From NCBI GenBank assembly GCA_037042185.1, contig JAXQJY010000032.1, positions 3,371,692-3,435,691 of the forward strand: 64,000 nucleotides of DNA, given 5' to 3'. The first letter of the stretch is position 1; each line of letters begins with the position of its first letter. The DNA comes from Sordariomycetes sp. S80-01Y. Its lineage: Eukaryota; Ascomycota; Sordariomycetes. Below the pieces are notes generated by a model, which was given only the letters and a program-made list of their open reading frames with translations, was not told where the DNA came from and did no database searches. Below are positions 50,409 through 63,751 of this stretch, one piece after another. Both the position numbers and the translations under genes were made by a program.

Positions 50409-51218
50409 GAGGCTCTTTTCGGCGGGCGGGGGTCACAGTCGAGGGGCTGGGCGACACGTGATGAGTCGAGATTGCGGTGTGCGGTCGATGCGCGTCAACC
50501 ATGGTGTTGTCCCGTTTGAGGATGAGGACAAGGCCTTGAAGGTGTTTGAAGGCGACACATCCTCTCTATCTCAACCGACGATCAGGTGACGTCGTCCCGT
50601 GGGTTTCAGTTTCAGCCTGAGGTCTCTCTCGGACACGGCAATCGCAGCAAAGCAAACGCGCCTTCCCTCCGAGTTGCAACTGATTGATTCACCTCATTCG
50701 GGTTTCACACGTGACCCTAAGGCGCCCAGCAGATATCTGTCCGAAACCACACTCTCCGAAACTCCCACAGGTTACCGAGACACAAGCCCGTGCGCGGTAC
50801 ACGAGATGCGACACGGTATTCACCAAGTGGTACCTACCGCGTCCGTGCCAGTGGCCTCCTCCACATTTAGGGGCCGCAAAACCGGCGGGGCCTCCGCCGG
50901 GGTGCCTCGAAACCCCCACTGTTCAGCAACGTCGCGCCGCCATCCCATCTCACAAACCATTCAATTCCCGGCCACTTCTGCGTCGTCTTAGGCGCCAAGA
51001 TGGCCATGAGGGACTTCCAACGGACACGTCAAGGCCGTCTCCGTCCGCCAGAAATGTCAGTTTCTACATCGGACGGCCACGGCTCTCTATTTAGCCTAAG
51101 CTGATCCACCTCGCTGCCCCGGCCGGTGTTCAAATACATCACGGAAGCTGGATTCACCGCCCACGGCTTCTCACCTTTCCGCTGCTTCTCAATTCCTGAT
51201 TGACAGCTGAACGGCAGA
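50409..51218. promoter_or_regulatory. Divergent promoter esterase / GH94 phosphorylase
   Basis: 810 bases between start codons of two catabolic-type genes; short open frames inside lack support. Shared regulation is possible but not shown by any motif I can identify. Confidence 0.45.
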
Positions 51219-53609
51219 ATGCGTTCCTCAATCGCCCAACACAGCCACATGTTGGCGCCGACTCAAGATGGTCTGCGCTACGAACTCACGAGCCCGACGG
51301 CTTTGCCTGTCGCCAGCGGCTTTCTCTGGAACCAGAAGATGATGATCCAGGCCACCTGTCGCGGATACTCGACTGCCCAGTTCATGCAGCCAGAGCCAGC
51401 CAAATACTCTCATTCCCCCAACATCGAGGCCAAAACTTTCATGCAGCCAGAACAGAACTACTACGCTCATCACCCGGGTCGCTTTGTCTACATCAAGGAT
51501 GAGGAAACGGGACAGCTCTTCTCGGCGCCTTACGAACCTGTGCGGGCCAAGCTGGATCGCTTCAAATTTTCCCACGGGCAAAGCGACCTTACCTGGATGG
51601 CTGAAAAGTTTGGTATCGCTGTCACCATGACATTGACGCTGCCTACAAATGACGTTGCCGAGCTGTGGACAGTCAAGGTCGAGAACAGGTCGGACCGTCC
51701 GCGCAAGCTCAGCGTCTACCCTTACTTTGTGGTCGGATACATGTCGTGGATGAATCAGGGGGCCAAGTACCGCGAAGATCTGGGTGGTGTAGTTGCGAGC
51801 AGCATCGCGCCGTACCAAAAAGCAGAAGACTACCCAAAACAGAAGTACTTCAAAGACAAGACATACTTCCTCTGTGAAAAGGCGCCATTATCCTGGGAGA
51901 CTCGCATGCAGGCGTTCGAAGGCGAGGGGGGTCTGCACGGCCCATCGTCAATCATGGAACTTGAGGAGCTATCCAAGAGTGATGCCATCTACGAGACACC
52001 AGCCGCTGTTGTTCAGTACAAGGAGCTCTTCGAAGCCGGAGGACAACAAACCTACCGCTTCTTGTTTGGCCCCGCCTATGACGATGCCGAGATCAAGTCC
52101 ATGCGCTCGAAGTTCCTGAGCGAGGAGGGCTTCGCCGAAGCAGCCAGGGACTATCTCACATATGTTCAGGGTGGCGGGGGTTGCTTACGCATCGAGACGC
52201 CCGACAAGGGCCTAGATAACTTCGTCAACAACTGGCTGCCTCGCCAAGTTTTCTACCACGGTGACACCAACCGACTTTCGACAGACCCTCAGACCAGAAA
52301 TTACTTGCAGGACAATATGGGCATGGCGTACATCAAGCCAGGGGTCTGCCGGCAATCTTTCCTGATCTCGCTCTCACAGCAGAAGAAGGACGGCTCCTTG
52401 CCCGACGGCATTCTTCTAGCGGAAGGCGCCACCCTCAAGTACATTAACCAGATCCCTCACACCGACCACTGCGTCTGGCTACCAGTGGCCCTGGATATTT
52501 ATCTCGCTGAGACGGCTGACTACGCTCTGCTCGATCAAGAGCTGGAGGACACATCCGGTGACAAGTTCACGGTTTTGGAGCGCTTCAGTCGTGCCATGGA
52601 CTGGTTGTTGCAAGCCTGCGATGAACGCGGGCTCAGCTACCTCGCACAGGGCGACTGGTGTGACCCGATGAACATGGCCGGGATCAAGGGCAAGGGAGTG
52701 TCGGGATGGCTTACAGTAGCCACAGCGTACGCCGTAAAGCTCTGGGCCAACATCTGTGAAGATGTCGGCAAGACAGACTTGGCGGAGCACTTCCGGAAAG
52801 GCGCGCAGAAGTTCAACGAGAGCGCCAACAAGCATCTGTGGGACGGGGAGTGGTTCTCACGTGGCATCACGGACGACAATGTCCCCTTCGGCGTTTCCTC
52901 AGACAAGGAGGGTCGCATCTGGCTCAACCCGCAGGCCTGGTCCATTCTTGGGGGTGCAGCCTCGAAAGATCAGATTGCCAAGATGCTGCCTCAAGTGGAG
53001 GCTCAGCTCGGCTCGCCCTACGGTGTGGCCATGTTCGCCCCGCCCTTCAGTGGGATGCGTGAGGACATCGGCCGTGTGACCCAGAAATTTCCGGGCAATG
53101 GCGAAAATGGGTCGGTTTACAACCACGCTTCCATCTTCTACATCCATGGGTTGTACAGCATCGGCGAAGCCGACCGCGCTTACACGCATCTACGGCAGAT
53201 GATCCCTGGACCATCTGACGAAGACTACATTCAACGTGGTCAGATGCCGGTCTTCATCCCCAACTACTACCGCGGTGGCTATCACGTCTATCCACGCACA
53301 GCCGGTCGCTCAAGCCAGCTGTTCAACACAGGTACCGTATCATGGGTATATCGCTCCTTCATCGAGGGCCTCTGCGGGCTCAGAGGTGACGCCAAGGGTC
53401 TTGCTATCAACCCACAGCTGCCCTCCCAATGGGACGGCATCAAAGTGCAGAGAGAGTTCAGGGGTGCCAAGTTCAATGTGGACATTCGCCGGGCGGATGT
53501 CGAGACTGTCCAGGTATCGCTTGGCGGTGAGGTCCTGCCCGAACCCCGGGTCACTGGGTTCAAGGCTGGTGAGACGTATGAGCTTTCGGTTTCCATCCCC
53601 AAAGCATAG
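51219..53609 (+). CDS. GH94 family phosphorylase, cellobionic-acid-phosphorylase-like
   Basis: Intronless, 796 residues from the ATG at 51219 (a second ATG at codon 11). GH94 enzymes reversibly phosphorolyse beta-glucosides. The N-terminal beta-sandwich (LSVYPYFVVGYMSW) leads to the (alpha/alpha)6 catalytic domain, with QDNMGMAYIKP, the general-acid aspartate motif GDWCD (about 478-482), NMAGIKGKGVSGWLT, NGENGSVYNHASIFYIHGLY and FIPNYYRGGYHVYPRTAGRSSQLFNTGT. Single-domain length and layout match fungal cellobionic acid phosphorylase described in Neurospora crassa, which splits cellobionic acid (a product of cellobiose dehydrogenase and oxidative cellulose breakdown) into glucose-1-phosphate and gluconate; that assignment is from memory. 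No signal peptide, so cytosolic. The family is mainly bacterial; with no introns, ancient transfer is plausible. Confidence 0.9.
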   Translation: MRSSIAQHSHMLAPTQDGLRYELTSPTALPVASGFLWNQKMMIQATCRGYSTAQFMQPEPAKYSHSPNIEAKTFMQPEQNYYAHHPGRFVYIKDEETGQLFSAPYEPVRAKLDRFKFSHGQSDLTWMAEKFGIAVTMTLTLPTNDVAELWTVKVENRSDRPRKLSVYPYFVVGYMSWMNQGAKYREDLGGVVASSIAPYQKAEDYPKQKYFKDKTYFLCEKAPLSWETRMQAFEGEGGLHGPSSIMELEELSKSDAIYETPAAVVQYKELFEAGGQQTYRFLFGPAYDDAEIKSMRSKFLSEEGFAEAARDYLTYVQGGGGCLRIETPDKGLDNFVNNWLPRQVFYHGDTNRLSTDPQTRNYLQDNMGMAYIKPGVCRQSFLISLSQQKKDGSLPDGILLAEGATLKYINQIPHTDHCVWLPVALDIYLAETADYALLDQELEDTSGDKFTVLERFSRAMDWLLQACDERGLSYLAQGDWCDPMNMAGIKGKGVSGWLTVATAYAVKLWANICEDVGKTDLAEHFRKGAQKFNESANKHLWDGEWFSRGITDDNVPFGVSSDKEGRIWLNPQAWSILGGAASKDQIAKMLPQVEAQLGSPYGVAMFAPPFSGMREDIGRVTQKFPGNGENGSVYNHASIFYIHGLYSIGEADRAYTHLRQMIPGPSDEDYIQRGQMPVFIPNYYRGGYHVYPRTAGRSSQLFNTGTVSWVYRSFIEGLCGLRGDAKGLAINPQLPSQWDGIKVQREFRGAKFNVDIRRADVETVQVSLGGEVLPEPRVTGFKAGETYELSVSIPKA

Positions 53610-57515: not shown

Positions 57516-60500
57516 ATGGTCTCCGAGACCAAGGGCAAGCGTCGAGCGGACGAGCCTTCGCCCGTCGAGATACTGCCCGACGAGATTATACAACAGTGAG
57601 ACCCCCCCGAGCTCGACCTGTCTCCGACGTTAGCTAACACCAGTCTCTCTTACCAGGATCCTCGCCGCTGCCGACCCCAATGGCTTCGCCTCCCTCATAC
57701 TGCTCAACCGCAAATGGCGGGCTGCGTCTCAAAGCGCCCACCTATACCTCCATCACCTACAGCGATGCCCATCTATAGCCGCGACCGAATCCAAACTTCC
57801 ACCCGCCGACGACGATGCTCTGCCGAGTCTGCGACGTCTGTTTGCACAGCAGGTGAAGCGAACCCTCTTCGATGCCTACCTTCGACCCCGCGAGACCCTC
57901 ATCCGTTTGGTATCCAACTCCATCAGCTCGTCATCATGCCCCGGCGGGGAGGGTATGCAATTCAATACTTCCCCTCGCTCTCAGCTGTTGCTCGCATACA
58001 ACTCCTCTCGTATATACATCATTGACGTCCGTGGCGATGGTGCCGAGGTCAAACGCGAGTTCAAAATCATCCGGCGCCCGGTTGCCGCGTGCGTCAAGGA
58101 TGATGCATCCTTGCTCGTAGTGCTGTCGAGCGAAATGCAGGTCGACATCTACGACCTCACAGAATCACCTCCGCGGAGGAAGCAAGCCATCATCCTGAAC
58201 AACACACCTCGGACCATCGCGCTGTCGCCATGTGGCTCCGTCTTGGCTGCCGCCTATGAAGGAGGCATAGAGGTGTCGTCTTTGAACCCAGGTGGGCTGC
58301 CGTCAGAAAGTCGATCCGTCAAATGTGACGCCGTTGATACGCTAGCTTTCTCCTACGACGGCACCCAGATTCTCGGGACCACCACCAATTCCTCGCCTCC
58401 AAGCACTGTCATCTTAACAGCACCCTACTACGATCCTGGCAACCTCCTTACCGACGATGGCATCAGCGCCATGTGGACCACTTCCATTCTGTTTCCCAAC
58501 TCGAGCCGCGACTGTAGTCATGCGGTTCTACTACAGGACGGCAGTCACGAGGAAGCAAGCTGGACATTCGCCTACGACCGAAGCTTTGAAACTTTCCGCG
58601 CCGTACGGATCGACGACCTGCGCAACGGCACTACCTATTTCACGGGTCCGGTCCCAGAGGCAGCTTCGCAAGCAAAGATGCTCCCCTCAACCTTGTCCGG
58701 GGCAACCTATCACGGCGAGCTCGTGGCCGCCGGCTTCCACCGGAAAGAAGTCTGGGTCTATGGCATTCCTGAGGATCTAGATGCTGTCCCAGAGACGGCT
58801 TCGTCCAATTCCGACAGGAACAGTACGTCTACTGGCTTGGGACGTCATGGCAGCGAACGTAGCAATGGCTCCCGTCTTCCATCATCAAGGGGCCAAGATG
58901 CTGAGGACGGACGCCTGCCACAATGGCAGTTGCTCTGCGACAAGCTGCGGAATACCCTGGTCCCAGGCTGCAAGGTAGCTGAGCTGTCAGGTGTTAGCAC
59001 CGCCAAGTGGGTAGCGAATTTCAGCAACAGCCCCCTCAAAGAGCGACTCGTCGTTACTGCTAAAGGTGTCAGTGGCACTCGACTGGTCACTGAAGAGGAA
59101 GATATCGACTTCGTCGACGGTGGTCGCGTGGCTCTTCTTGACTTTGACTACACCATTTCCAATGGTCAGAAGACAGAAATCACTGTCGAGGTAGGCACCG
59201 ATGAAGCTGAGCCCTTGGAGGAAGAACACCGCGATATAGAAACAGAGGTTGCCATCGTTCGCCGCCGGACGGTAGCCCAGAAACATGGAGGTCGAAGTGC
59301 CCTTCTCCGTGCCGCCACGAGCGCCAAACGTGACGTGCCCATCATCCCATCCGTGCCTGCTATGCCTGGAAGCTCGGCAGGGAACTCAAATGACGATGAC
59401 GACCCGCTGAAGCCGCGAAAAATTGGTTCGAACCCGGCAAGAAACATTGCAAACGACGGCCCTGATGACGAGGAGTTTGCGACCATCGAAGAACAAGAGG
59501 CCTTGGAATCCCCCTACGCTCATGCGAGCCCTCGATCTGCCCCTACTCTACGACGTGCAGCTACTGCAGCGGCTGTGAATCAGCGACTCAACCCTCGGCT
59601 GGCGGACGGCCGGCCCATAGAGTATCGCCGCGCTGACGGTCGACGTGAGCATCCTCACGAAAGCGACGCAGATAACTGGGTGCCGCCTCCACCTCCATAT
59701 CAAAAGGAGGACCCGGGAGATCTGCCAGCCTTCCTCAGTGGACCTGCTGTAACTCCTATGGGAGCGCCGCCAGTCCCTCCCCTGCCCTCAATGCCAGCAT
59801 TGGCTGGTCTCCAACGAAATGGGCCACACTCAGGACGACCTACAAATCACTCTTCGCCTGATCTGCTGAATAAGGATCGTGAGACGGGTGATCCCGGTCG
59901 GATGTCTCACCACCAGAGGACAGCCAGCGACTCGACAACGATGAGCCGGCCACGCCCGGATGACGTTCCTCGTCCGATGTCGAGCCCATCAGCCCATGTG
60001 GATGCAGATGACCTCTACAACGCATCACCACCTCGGTCTCCTCTACCGCCCACGGCAGACTCTCAACCTGGGTCCCAGCGAGTAGACACTATCACCTTGG
60101 CACCAGCGCAAGACTCGCAACCTTTGCTTCAGCCTGTCGATCGACCGATGCCGCCGCAGCAACCACCTGCGGTTGTGACTGAGCAAGATACTTCCTCGCC
60201 AGTGACGTCTGACGAACCGCCTCGGCCAAGCTTGACACTGCAAGTGCCACAGCCCCCTGCAGAGATTCTAACTTCGCATGCTCCAGAGCCTCCCAGGATG
60301 AGGAGCCTATCGAACGCACAGACATGGCCGGCTGGCCTTGAACAAGGCCCAAGCCAGCCTACGAGCCATCCGTTTGGAGCCCCCTATTCAGCCCCCTATC
60401 AAAATACACCTGCAGGCTACGTTCCCAACCTTCCACCCCCGAGTTCAGAGCAGATAGCAAGCCTCAACAGGAGGATGAGCCAAGGCACACCGCAACGACT

Positions 60501-61110
60501 TTCGGGAGGGTGGTATGATCAACAACATCCGCCAACATCCTGGGGTGGTCAGGCTCCCCATCCGCGCAGCTCTCATCCTGCAGCTCCAGCTCCAGCTCCA
60601 GCCACCACATGGCCAGCAGGCCCGGAACAGCCCCTCATTATAAGCACACCGAGGGGCGTTGCCGGCGCCTTCGACCCACCAGACCGCCAGGCATCTAACA
60701 GGCGCAGTGACATGCCAATCGTCGCGCCCGTCCCCAGGCATCCTCGCCAGGCTCACGGCCCAAGCTCGAGGCCCACAGTCGAGCGGCTCGAAACCATCTA
60801 CAGTATTGCGCCGTCGCAGCAGTCCCAAACTCGCCAAGGACGCAAGCTCATGCCCTTGTGGCGGCGGTCTCCTTCGGTCTCCCCCGGTGCCGTCCCCGTG
60901 GGCGTTGCCCGACAAACAAGTCGCGCTGAACGAAGCGCTGCAAAGAATATGAAGGACGCAAAGAAGAGGGGCTGGGATCCCCAGAAGAGTAGGAAAAAGA
61001 AGAAGAAGAGGAAAGATTACGACATGGCCAGCAGTGCTGGGTGGACAGATATCTCTACGAGTTCGGCTATCAAGGAGCGCTTCCAGGAAAAGAGATGTGT
61101 GGTCATGTAA
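57516..61110 (+). CDS. F-box-like protein with beta-propeller-like region and CaaX box
   Basis: Exons 57516..57595 and 57657..61110 give 1177 residues. The 61-nt intron (GTGAGA, branch GCTAACAC, acceptor TACCAG) joins EILPDEIIQ to QILAAADPNGFASL, an F-box-like N-terminus (about 16-65, ending LLNRKWRAASQSAHLYLHHL). About 110-500 looks like a WD/beta-propeller region: LLLAYNSSRIYIIDVRGDG, ACVKDDASLLVVLSSEMQVDIYDL, RTIALSPCGSVLAAAYEGG and DTLAFSYDGTQIL. Residues about 560-1100 are disordered and Pro-rich, including a CAGCTC-repeat-coded PAPAPA at 60581. The C-terminus has a polybasic cluster (KSRKKKKKRKDY) and ends RCVVM, a consensus CaaX farnesylation signal. A membrane-tethered F-box-related protein is the inference; substrate and SCF membership are unknown. 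Confidence 0.85.
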
Positions 61111-61593
61111 AGCGTACACACTGGTGTCATTTGTTCTCATGATGATTTATGGAAAGCGAGGTTTGGTTTTTCTTTGTATTCTTAGCGGTACATGCATAGC
61201 GCGGGTCCAATTATCCAAGGCGATGGGAAACAAGCGTCGACACAACTATGCAAGCCACGTTACCAAACTACAGCGTATTCTTGTCGCATTTGTCGTCAGC
61301 ATCACCTTATACCATCACAGTTGGCACTCAAGTGGAAGGGCGGACGGCGCAGTTCCGGGAAAGCTGGGATAAGTCAAATATATTATGTAGCCGCACTATC
61401 AAAGTCAAGCCTTGAGAGTAGATAGGATACGACTGTCAGAAGGCCACCAACTCCACCAATAATGAATGCCCCAGGACAAACCAGAAATCTAGTGGGACAT
61501 AAGCACATGTAAGTAATCAATATAGTCAATCAAGCTCACCAACCCCTATAGACAAGGGCGAGCACTCCTAGTCTCCTCCTCCGCAAACATGGG
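61111..61593. other. Convergent intergenic region
   Basis: 3' flanks of the F-box-like and the surface-protein genes. Nothing recognised. Confidence 0.6.
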
Positions 61594-63027
61594 TCAGATC
61601 TTGGGCGACTGGCCGGGGAATTGGCAGTACGTCTTGCTCGTACCGACCCCATCCATACCTGTCTCCTTCATCAACTTGTTCATACTAAAGTCCGGGAACT
61701 GTGTGATTCTGTCATGGTCGGGCTCCGCAGCGCATGATCGTCGGGAGCCCTGACCAGCCTGCCCATCATTGGGGTCGTTCTGGGAATCGTCCACGATGAG
61801 TATCGTCTCCGACGAAGCGTCATCCTCGGCTCGGGCGGGGCGCTTGGGCTGGGGGGCGAGCTGACGCGAGCGGCGAGAGATGCTCCGTGCCATCTCTGGA
61901 TGCAAATGACGGGAATGAGTCCTTGATGTTGGTTTCATGGAGCGGATCGGCGGGACGGATGCGCTGTTGACGTTGCCTTTGCGGACGAACTCGTTGGAGG
62001 GGATCTGATCGACCGGAGTCTCGGGTATGGATGGGTTGGGCGAAGCGCCTCCGAAGGGAAAATGCGAGGAGCCACGATCGCTTCGACTGAAGCGAGAGCT
62101 GAGCCTCCTCAGCCGGGACTGCCTCGCATCCTGCGGATACAATACTCCTAATCCGTCTCCGTCGTCGTCCAGCCCCTCGCCTGGTTCGGTGTCCCTCTTC
62201 TGGAGGAAGTCGCAACGACCAAAGTCATGGTTCTGGTCAACGTTCGTAGGTCCAGAGATGTTGCGACCGTGGAGGATTTGAGTTGTTGGCGGCTGAGAAG
62301 GCGGCGGCGTACCAGCCGGTCTGCGTTTGGCCCGTTTGCGGACGCAAACGAAGAGGATGACTGCTACGATGAGGAGAACACCGCAGGCGCCCACGACACC
62401 TCCGACTATAGATACCGTGTCCGGTCCAGAGTCTTCCTTAGAGGAATCACCCGTTTCCGACGCTGGATCATTTGTCGCCGTCGGATTTGCCCCAGTTGTT
62501 GAGCTCGGGCCAGAGGACGGTTCCGATGTTGGGTCTGAGCTGGCGGTTGATTTTGTTTCCGTTGGGTCTGCTTTGCCATCCTCGTCCCCATCAGCATCGG
62601 GACGCTTCGACTGGTCACTATTCTTCTTGCACTCTTTGCCGTCCTTCCCGTCACCACAGGAGAAGCCGAAGGGACAGCATCCATCAGCGCCACATCTCTC
62701 CAGCTCGACATCAAACACTGTTGTCTTGAGTGGCAGCGAATGATCCTCCTCTGCATCCTGGGCGCGGATGTTGCAGGTAATGACAGGGAGAGTCTGGCAC
62801 TCCTTGCCCTCCGGGCAGCACAGGACCGTGGTGTCGCCAGCAAGGGACATGCACCTTGAGCCCTCCGGACAGCAGAAGTAATCGGGAAAGTTGTTCCCGC
62901 AAGTCTCGAATCCTTTGGCGTCGCAGGAAGACTGTTGGCGCGCGAAGATGGACGAAGCGGGTATTCCCGTCGTTGTTGTTGCTGCTGCTAGTAGCAGCAG
63001 CGGCAGAGCGGTTGGCGATCGAAACAT
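61594..63027 (-). CDS. Cys-rich single-pass surface protein (sensor-like)
   Basis: A single exon of 477 residues from the ATG at 63027. Layout: signal peptide (MFRSPTALPLLLLAAATTTT); Cys-rich ectodomain at about 35-133 with paired motifs YFCCPEGSRCM, VLCCPEGKECQ and GCCPFGFSCG; Ser/Thr/Pro-rich stalk (about 150-200), a probable O-mannosylation region; one transmembrane segment (about 205-229, VSIVGGVVGACGVLLIVAVILFV); stop-transfer KRAKRR; and a Ser/Arg-rich cytoplasmic tail of about 240 residues. The architecture resembles fungal wall-stress sensors of the Wsc/Mid2 kind, but the Cys spacing is not a WSC domain. A receptor or wall-anchored sensor is the inference. The stalk would be a natural substrate class for Pmt-type O-mannosylation. 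Confidence 0.85.
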   Translation of the reverse strand: MFRSPTALPLLLLAAATTTTGIPASSIFARQQSSCDAKGFETCGNNFPDYFCCPEGSRCMSLAGDTTVLCCPEGKECQTLPVITCNIRAQDAEEDHSLPLKTTVFDVELERCGADGCCPFGFSCGDGKDGKECKKNSDQSKRPDADGDEDGKADPTETKSTASSDPTSEPSSGPSSTTGANPTATNDPASETGDSSKEDSGPDTVSIVGGVVGACGVLLIVAVILFVCVRKRAKRRPAGTPPPSQPPTTQILHGRNISGPTNVDQNHDFGRCDFLQKRDTEPGEGLDDDGDGLGVLYPQDARQSRLRRLSSRFSRSDRGSSHFPFGGASPNPSIPETPVDQIPSNEFVRKGNVNSASVPPIRSMKPTSRTHSRHLHPEMARSISRRSRQLAPQPKRPARAEDDASSETILIVDDSQNDPNDGQAGQGSRRSCAAEPDHDRITQFPDFSMNKLMKETGMDGVGTSKTYCQFPGQSPKI

Positions 63028-63751
63028 GACGACAAGTCTAGTATGTTTTCAGAGTTGTATAAGTGTGGTTGTGTATGGGCTCGGCCCAGAGCGCAGTGTG
63101 TTGGTGTGCCACTTGTTGTTGGTGATTGCAAATGCGGTACGTGAGGATACTTGGACGAATGTTAAGAAAACAGAAACAAATAGCGTGGTCAGCTTGACAG
63201 AGCAGCTTCTCGTAAGTGAAGCTTCCAGTTCTCGACAAAGCTGGCTGGTATCAACGAGTGGGCGAACAAGGCGGACCAGCGCCAGATGAGAGCGACAAAG
63301 GAGAAGAGACTCAAGGAGATGACGAAGGAAGCTTTTCCGCAAGACCAGGAGAAGAATGAAAATGGAACAAAGAAGAGGAACTAGAGGTGAGAAGACCGTC
63401 TTCGTAAGCGGGAGTAATGCCGTGATGCAAGATCCTGCAAAGACTGCAGTAACCGCCGCAGTGCATGGCATTGCCGTCGGGCCCTCTGCAGACCATTCAA
63501 CAGGGCTCAAATCCCCTTGATGGAGTCATCGGGTCCACCTGCCCAGGACATCCACCGACCACTCGGCTCAGCCTGCCGGCTTATTCTACGGAGTCTGTTT
63601 TGATAGACGCCGGACGAGGTTGGAGGATAGGCCTTGAGGGTCCCTCAGGCGGACGGCCATGGTTGGTTGTCGCGCATCGTGGGCGCGATTGGTTAGGCGC
63701 CTGATTGGGCGGCTGCGAAGAAGCTATTTTGGGAGGCTCTGGGCGCCAATC
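63028..63751. other. Divergent intergenic region at right end
   Basis: Promoters of the surface-protein gene and of the partial gene at the right edge. No repeat or RNA seen. Confidence 0.5.

What the first reader, a model, noticed from the sequence alone, without database searches (positions are those of the whole stretch)
60995..61110. F-box-like protein ending in polybasic region plus CaaX box (CVVM)
The last four residues are Cys-Val-Val-Met, a textbook farnesyltransferase signal, preceded by KSRKKKKKRKDY. Together these are the two elements that anchor Ras-type proteins to the plasma membrane. On an F-box-like N-terminus with a propeller-like middle this would make a membrane-tethered adaptor, possibly recruiting ubiquitin ligase to membrane proteins. 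Farnesylated F-box proteins are known elsewhere (animal FBXL2 is prenylated), but I know of none characterised in this fungal family.
Basis: partly seen in the sequence, partly recalled or inferred. Interest (0 to 1): 0.7.

Follow-up and report, generated by a model that had tools for sequence, protein, structure and literature searches.

The report
Fungal F-box protein with farnesylation signal
A single-copy fungal protein with a weak F-box at its start and a strongly conserved but unstudied domain in the middle ends in the same four-residue signal that attaches a lipid to Ras, so it is probably a membrane-bound adaptor of the protein-disposal machinery; proteins built this way are already known in yeast and animals.

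Summary
A two-exon gene (57516-57595, 57657-61110) encodes 1177 residues ending EKRCVVM-stop. Cys1174 is the only cysteine after residue 465. The cluster RKKKKKRK (1139-1146) lies 27 residues upstream, not next to the box. The middle (104-550) is a full-length match to Pfam DUF7165 (710 bits); the F-box-like match is weak (18.8 bits, cut-off 24.3). A splice-site scan found no intron reaching the tail. The genome encodes a farnesyltransferase beta exon, and a Ras-family exon there also ends CVVM. CVVM is the human N-Ras box, and its gel shift needs farnesyltransferase in a yeast assay (PMC11152559).

The architecture has precedents: yeast Rcy1 and fission-yeast Pof6 are F-box/CaaX proteins. In this genome 2 of 42 F-box loci also end in CaaX, an Rcy1-like protein (CSVM) and an FBXL2-like F-box/LRR protein (CFVM). 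Best reading: a farnesylated F-box adaptor with a propeller-like DUF7165 domain, acting at a membrane. Farnesylation is likely; ubiquitin-ligase function is inferred. No fungal orthologues were reachable, so conservation of the tail is untested. Interest 0.4.

The parts
57516..57595 (+). exon 1, start codon and first part of the F-box-like motif (PVEILPDEIIQQ)
57596..57656 (+). intron, 61 bases, GTGAGA...CTAAC...CCAG, splits the F-box-like motif
   Evidence: predicted from sequence, no transcript seen
57657..61110 (+). exon 2, rest of the 1177-residue protein, TAA stop
57570..57756 (+). F-box-like motif, residues 19-60 (spans the intron), 18.8 bits, below cut-off 24.3
57886..59226 (+). DUF7165 (PF23749), residues 104-550, 710 bits, profile 1-442 of 442; propeller-like
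59227..60957 (+). Pro/Ser/Gln-rich, probably disordered linker
   Evidence: read by eye; no Pfam match in this part of the exon-2 protein; no disorder program was run
60991..61014 (+). basic cluster RKKKKKRK, residues 1139-1146
61096..61107 (+). CaaX box CVVM, Cys1174

Best explanation
A single-copy fungal adaptor: an N-terminal F-box-like motif would bind Skp1, the DUF7165 domain (probably a WD40-like propeller) would bind a client, a long disordered linker gives reach, and the C-terminal Cys1174 is farnesylated by farnesyltransferase (Ram1/Ram2), then presumably cleaved after the Cys and methylated. Lipid plus basic residues hold the protein on a negatively charged cytosolic membrane face, most likely plasma membrane or endosomes, where it brings Skp1 (and, if the F-box works as in SCF ligases, Cul1/E2) to membrane proteins or vesicle cargo. 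Shown here: gene, tail, DUF7165, farnesyltransferase beta exon, single copy. Inferred: farnesylation, membrane site, Skp1 binding, client, SCF activity.
For: CVVM at the end of a long coding frame, with no tail intron found. Only Cys in the last 712 residues. CVVM is the N-Ras box, and the NRas reporter did not shift without FTase (passage of PMC11152559). A Ras-family exon of the same genome ends CCSKCVVM. An FTase beta exon matches the solved fungal Ram1 4l9p at 1.6e-48 (that 4l9p is from A. fumigatus is recalled). The F-box-like motif keeps the Leu-Pro start. Two other F-box frames in the genome end in CaaX with Met at X: Rcy1-like CSVM and FBXL2-like CFVM, 2 of 42 loci; in the first 22 loci 6 of the other 1005 frame ends fit the same regex. 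The FBXL2-like protein also has a basic run (RRRRRR) 26 residues before its Cys. Rcy1's CAAX box is needed for its localisation.
Against: The F-box match is below Pfam's cut-off. No orthologue was reachable, so conservation of tail and lysines is unknown. The lysine run is coded partly by AAG AAG AAG AAG, so it may owe something to triplet slippage. Rcy1 and Pof6, the closest precedents, are classed as non-SCF. The propeller rests on weak profile matches to one piece, no solved structure matched, and the AlphaFold model was useless (pLDDT 34). I did not search for the FTase alpha subunit or the post-prenylation enzymes.
Confidence: 0.55

Rival explanations
1. Rcy1-like, non-SCF: the protein is farnesylated and binds Skp1, but works in endocytic recycling or polarised traffic without building a ubiquitin ligase.
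For: The characterised fungal F-box/CaaX proteins Rcy1 and Pof6 are classed as non-SCF.
Against: No Sec10-like domain here; DUF7165 instead. The non-SCF class was assigned by lack of a conserved F-box proline, while this F-box-like motif has Leu-Pro at its start; the Rcy1-like protein of this genome also has it, so the criterion does not separate them here.
Confidence: 0.2
2. Lamin-like targeting: the basic cluster is a nuclear localisation signal (KKRGWDPQKSRKKKKKRK is bipartite in form, judged by eye) and the farnesyl group puts the protein on the inner nuclear membrane, or it shuttles between membrane and nucleus.
For: Cluster is 27 residues from the Cys. In A. nidulans Fbx58 and Fbx67 are described at plasma membrane and nucleus, and shuttling was suggested (passages of PMC9744329). 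Nuclear lamins are listed as FTase substrates in PMC9141697.
Confidence: 0.15
3. The CaaX box is a chance ending or is not modified; the protein is a soluble cytoplasmic or nuclear F-box protein.
For: A loose CaaX regex fits 6 of 1005 frame ends other than the two F-box/CaaX ones; five of the 8 genomic CVVM-stop matches end frames of 110 residues or fewer that I did not resolve.
Against: CVVM is a proven FTase sequence in N-Ras, the Cys is isolated in a 712-residue stretch without another Cys, and basic residues precede it.
Confidence: 0.1

Closest known systems
Rcy1 (S. cerevisiae) / Pof6 (S. pombe) / Sls2 (Y. lipolytica), F-box + CaaX
   Same: N-terminal F-box and C-terminal CaaX in one fungal protein (passages for Rcy1 and Pof6; Sls2 is named there only as their homologue); CAAX needed for localisation of Rcy1
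   Different: Their middle is Sec10-like (recalled for these three; found in L012), not DUF7165; this genome has its own separate Rcy1-like gene, L012, with a Sec10-like domain and ending CSVM
FBXL2 (animal F-box/LRR, geranylgeranylated by GGTase-III)
   Same: F-box protein held at membranes by a prenylated CaaX (passages)
   Different: LRR instead of DUF7165; X = L (CVIL), geranylgeranyl; this genome has a separate FBXL2-like gene, L031, ending CFVM
DUF7165 proteins (PF23749)
   Same: Full-length 442-position match, 710 bits
   Different: No paper under either name in the held library, so nothing to compare function with
N-Ras / fungal Ras
   Same: Identical CaaX box CVVM
   Different: No GTPase domain; basic cluster far from the Cys and no neighbouring Cys for palmitoylation

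Membership tests
DUF7165 (PF23749) | match over the curated cut-off along the profile | tested here: met
   710.5 bits, cut-off 26.7, 1-442 of 442
F-box proteins | F-box over the Pfam cut-off | tested here: not met
   PF12937 18.8 bits of 24.3; PF00646 12.4 of 20.5; so called F-box-like only
F-box proteins | Skp1 binding | not testable with these tools
   needs an experiment
CaaX proteins (FTase substrates) | C-terminal Cys-aliphatic-aliphatic-X, X = Met for FTase | tested here: met
   CVVM-stop; FTase beta exon present; the Met rule is recalled, CVVM itself is shown for NRas
CaaX proteins (FTase substrates) | farnesyl group on the Cys | not testable with these tools
   needs mass spectrometry or a mobility shift
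CaaX proteins (FTase substrates) | terminal Cys conserved in orthologues | not testable with these tools
   no fungal collection held; no hit in one scan each of bacterial/archaeal and viral contigs; one copy in own genome
Rcy1/Pof6 family | Sec10-like domain (PF07393) | tested here: not met
   not among the Pfam matches of this protein; present in L012
FBXL2 family | leucine-rich repeats | tested here: not met
   none among the Pfam matches; present in L031
WD40/beta-propeller | propeller profile over its cut-off | tested here: inconclusive
   sub-cut-off matches only, for residues 127-300: THOC3 15.9 bits, WDR36/Utp21 13.8 and 12.3 bits; residues 301-421 matched DUF7165 alone; AF2 without alignment failed, pLDDT 34

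The most novel reading that the evidence does not exclude
Filamentous fungi keep a set of at least three unrelated F-box adaptors (DUF7165, Rcy1-like, FBXL2-like), each farnesylated at a Cys-x-x-Met end, that together put Skp1 on membranes; the DUF7165 member is an uncharacterised, lipid-anchored substrate receptor whose farnesyl tail has been overlooked, possibly because C-terminal GFP tags hide it.
Probability: 0.35. Interest if true: 0.6.

Novelty: new variant of a known kind. Interest (0 to 1): 0.4.

Why it matters
If right, it adds a third domain type to prenylated F-box proteins and gives the DUF7165 family, on which I found no paper, a first mechanistic handle: membrane anchoring. It also warns that systematic F-box localisation work with fbx::gfp fusions (PMC9744329, passages), if the GFP is C-terminal, would mask a CaaX signal. 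It links farnesyltransferase, proposed as an antifungal target (recalled), to protein turnover at membranes.

Tried and rejected
Relatives: one scan each of bacterial/archaeal and viral contigs found none, as expected for a fungal gene; the own genome has one copy (the second row there, E 0.436, I take as no relative). The tools said that this genome has no relatives held, and metagenome scans were capped at 0, so I did not try them.

Structure: AlphaFold of the first 584 residues of exon 2 (residues 28-611) without alignment gave pLDDT 34.2; I ran no fold search on it. PDB sequence searches gave nothing up to E 1 for the same stretch and one match at E 1.3 for a smaller piece, which I disregard.

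3' intron: a donor/branch/acceptor scan of 60500-61140 found one candidate (60513-60707, 195 bases, upstream of the tail and in frame) and none touching the tail. GTAAAG over the stop codon (61107) fails the donor filter of that scan, and I see no CTRAY branch site in the next 80 bases (read by eye). Only transcripts would settle it.

Rejected: adjacency of the polybasic stretch to the CaaX box (27 residues apart); FBXL2 as a farnesylated precedent (it is geranylgeranylated); 'no precedent in fungi' (Rcy1, Pof6).

Literature: DUF7165/PF23749 0 papers; F-box + CaaX + Neurospora + farnesyltransferase 0; F-box + CVVM 1, the yeast assay paper; F-box + beta-propeller + CaaX + fungal 2, listing only, neither about fungal F-box proteins by title or abstract start; looser searches seen as partial listings: 25 of 225, 15 of 24, 12 of 56, 12 of 671. 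The original Rcy1 papers are not held. NCBIfam gave nothing for this protein.

Full report
What is there. The gene has exon 1 at 57516-57595, a 61-base GT-AG intron with a CTAAC branch site, and exon 2 at 57657-61110; joined, they encode 1177 residues with one stop, at the end. The last codons are K R C V V M stop, with the Cys codon at 61096-61098. The finding's sequence observation is therefore right. Its wording 'preceded by' is loose: RKKKKKRK is residues 1139-1146 and the Cys is 1174, with 27 residues between; the residues directly before the Cys are IKERFQEKR.

Is it chance. By the protein's own composition CVVM has probability 3.5e-7 and a general C[AVIL][ILVM][MSQAC] about 1e-4; Cys1174 is the only Cys after residue 465. 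A scan of the whole genome for codons of CVVM followed by TAR gives 8 matches against 3 for the pattern read backwards. Among the 8 are this gene, a Ras-family exon ending CCSKCVVM and an Smr-domain protein ending HCCVVM; the other five end open frames of 10, 47, 48, 76 and 110 residues that I did not resolve. Third-position GC in the 120 bases from 60958 is 0.68 and is 0.45, 0.35 and 0.47 in the next three blocks, which hold or follow the stop; since the coding blocks before it range from 0.35 to 0.72, this is weak support. A splice-site scan of 60500-61140 found no intron that would remove the tail.

What the protein is. Pfam gives a full-length match to DUF7165 (PF23749), 710.5 bits, residues 104-550. 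The N-terminus matches F-box-like at 18.8 bits, E 0.0014, under the cut-off of 24.3, and F-box at 12.4 bits; the motif is split by the intron, and the gene is absent from the six-frame F-box lists. One of two DUF7165 pieces (residues 127-300) gives weak matches to beta-propeller profiles (THOC3 15.9 bits, WDR36/Utp21 13.8 and 12.3 bits) and to DUF7099 (21.8 bits, cut-off 30), all below cut-off; the other piece (residues 301-421) matches DUF7165 alone, and the tail piece nothing. Residues from about 551 to 1127 are Pro/Ser-rich by eye and look disordered. The gene is single copy.

Machinery. PF00432 matches lie at three places of the genome. By best solved-structure match they are farnesyltransferase beta (L015, fungal Ram1 4l9p, 1.6e-48), Rab geranylgeranyltransferase beta (L013) and possibly GGTase-I beta (L014, 5.6e-10, barely ahead of FTase beta at 1.9e-9). 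I did not search for the alpha subunits or the post-prenylation enzymes. CVVM is the human N-Ras box; in the yeast assay of PMC11152559 the NRas variant shifted with human FTase and not without FTase (passage seen). So farnesylation is the likely modification. This step is inferred, not shown.

Control census. I looked at the 42 loci that two searches put over a Pfam F-box cut-off (41 by PF12937, and one more by PF00646; the tool calls such counts lower bounds, and the 19 rows below the cut-off were left out apart from that one). I fetched 22 with wide flanks and the other 20 with shorter stretches. In 2 of 42 the F-box frame itself ends in a CaaX box; in one of the 42 (L039) a stop inside the match kept the frame from being read, so it counts as a miss. 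One, L012/L042, has an F-box and a Sec10-like domain and ends CSVM: it is the Rcy1/Pof6 counterpart by domains. The other, L031, is an F-box/LRR protein whose best solved match is FBXL2 (2.3e-39) and ends GGRRRARTMGSCFVM, with RRRRRR 26 residues before the Cys. In the first 22 loci, 1007 frames of at least 40 residues end downstream of the F-box start on the same strand; 8 fit the regex, the two just named and 6 of the other 1005, which include the other F-box frames. The background was not run for the last 20 loci. Genes with later exons have their true ends unread, so 2 of 42 is a lower bound. The window gene is a third such protein, found first and so not part of the count. All three have Met at X, which I recall as the FTase type.

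Known counterparts. Rcy1 has an N-terminal F-box and a C-terminal CAAX box; [quoted passage not shown] Pof6 is listed as CAAX, Rcy1-like, non-SCF, the class resting on a missing F-box proline (passage of PMC2910015). FBXL2 is geranylgeranylated by GGTase-III through CVIL, which controls its localisation at membranes (passages of PMC9141697). So F-box plus prenyl is a known kind; F-box-like plus DUF7165 plus CaaX is a combination on which I found nothing in print (for DUF7165/PF23749; for F-box and CaaX terms, seen as listings, some of them partial). In A. nidulans 73 F-box proteins were tagged with GFP; the text names two, Fbx58 and Fbx67, at the plasma membrane, while a figure legend gives 1.4% (passages of PMC9744329). 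The cassettes are written fbx::gfp, which suggests C-terminal GFP that would block a CaaX box; that is my inference, and I could not see which protein carries DUF7165.

How it most likely works. Farnesylated and processed, the protein sits on a membrane by lipid plus basic residues; the F-box-like motif brings Skp1, DUF7165 picks the client, and the long linker lets the head reach it. Whether Cul1 follows (ubiquitin ligase) or not (as for Rcy1) is open. A nuclear reading of the basic cluster, giving nuclear-envelope anchoring or shuttling, is a real rival. I put about 0.8 on farnesylation, 0.55 on a membrane-anchored F-box adaptor with ligase function likely, 0.2 on the Rcy1-like non-SCF version and 0.15 on the nuclear version.

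Limits. The lysine run is partly AAG AAG AAG AAG, though Tandem Repeats Finder reports no array over it (its one row is 60865-60888).

Noticed in passing
L031 (G000:C11:282000-288500), 3-2069 +: F-box/LRR protein, best solved match FBXL2, ending GGRRRARTMGSCFVM with an RRRRRR run upstream: a fungal FBXL2-like protein whose CaaX ends in Met, unlike animal CVIL.
   Followed up: partly
window 51204-53609 +: Uninterrupted 801-residue frame with GH94 catalytic and supersandwich domains (197.5 and 93.5 bits): a phosphorylase-type enzyme; its intronless frame would fit transfer from bacteria, untested.
   Followed up: partly
window 61594-63048 -: Gene convergent with the F-box gene: 484-residue frame, Cys-rich extracellular-looking part, one probable transmembrane segment by eye, no Pfam match over cut-off (MGC-24 22.7 of 28.5 bits).
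   Followed up: partly
L022 1504-2181 -: Smr-domain (DUF1771 + Smr) protein ending KHCCVVM, i.e. another apparent CaaX protein.
   Followed up: no
L021 and L024, ORFs ending at 1512 +: Short open frames of 76 and 110 residues ending CCVVM, Cys-rich in L024 (no Pfam match); could be small CaaX peptides such as pheromone precursors, or chance.
   Followed up: no
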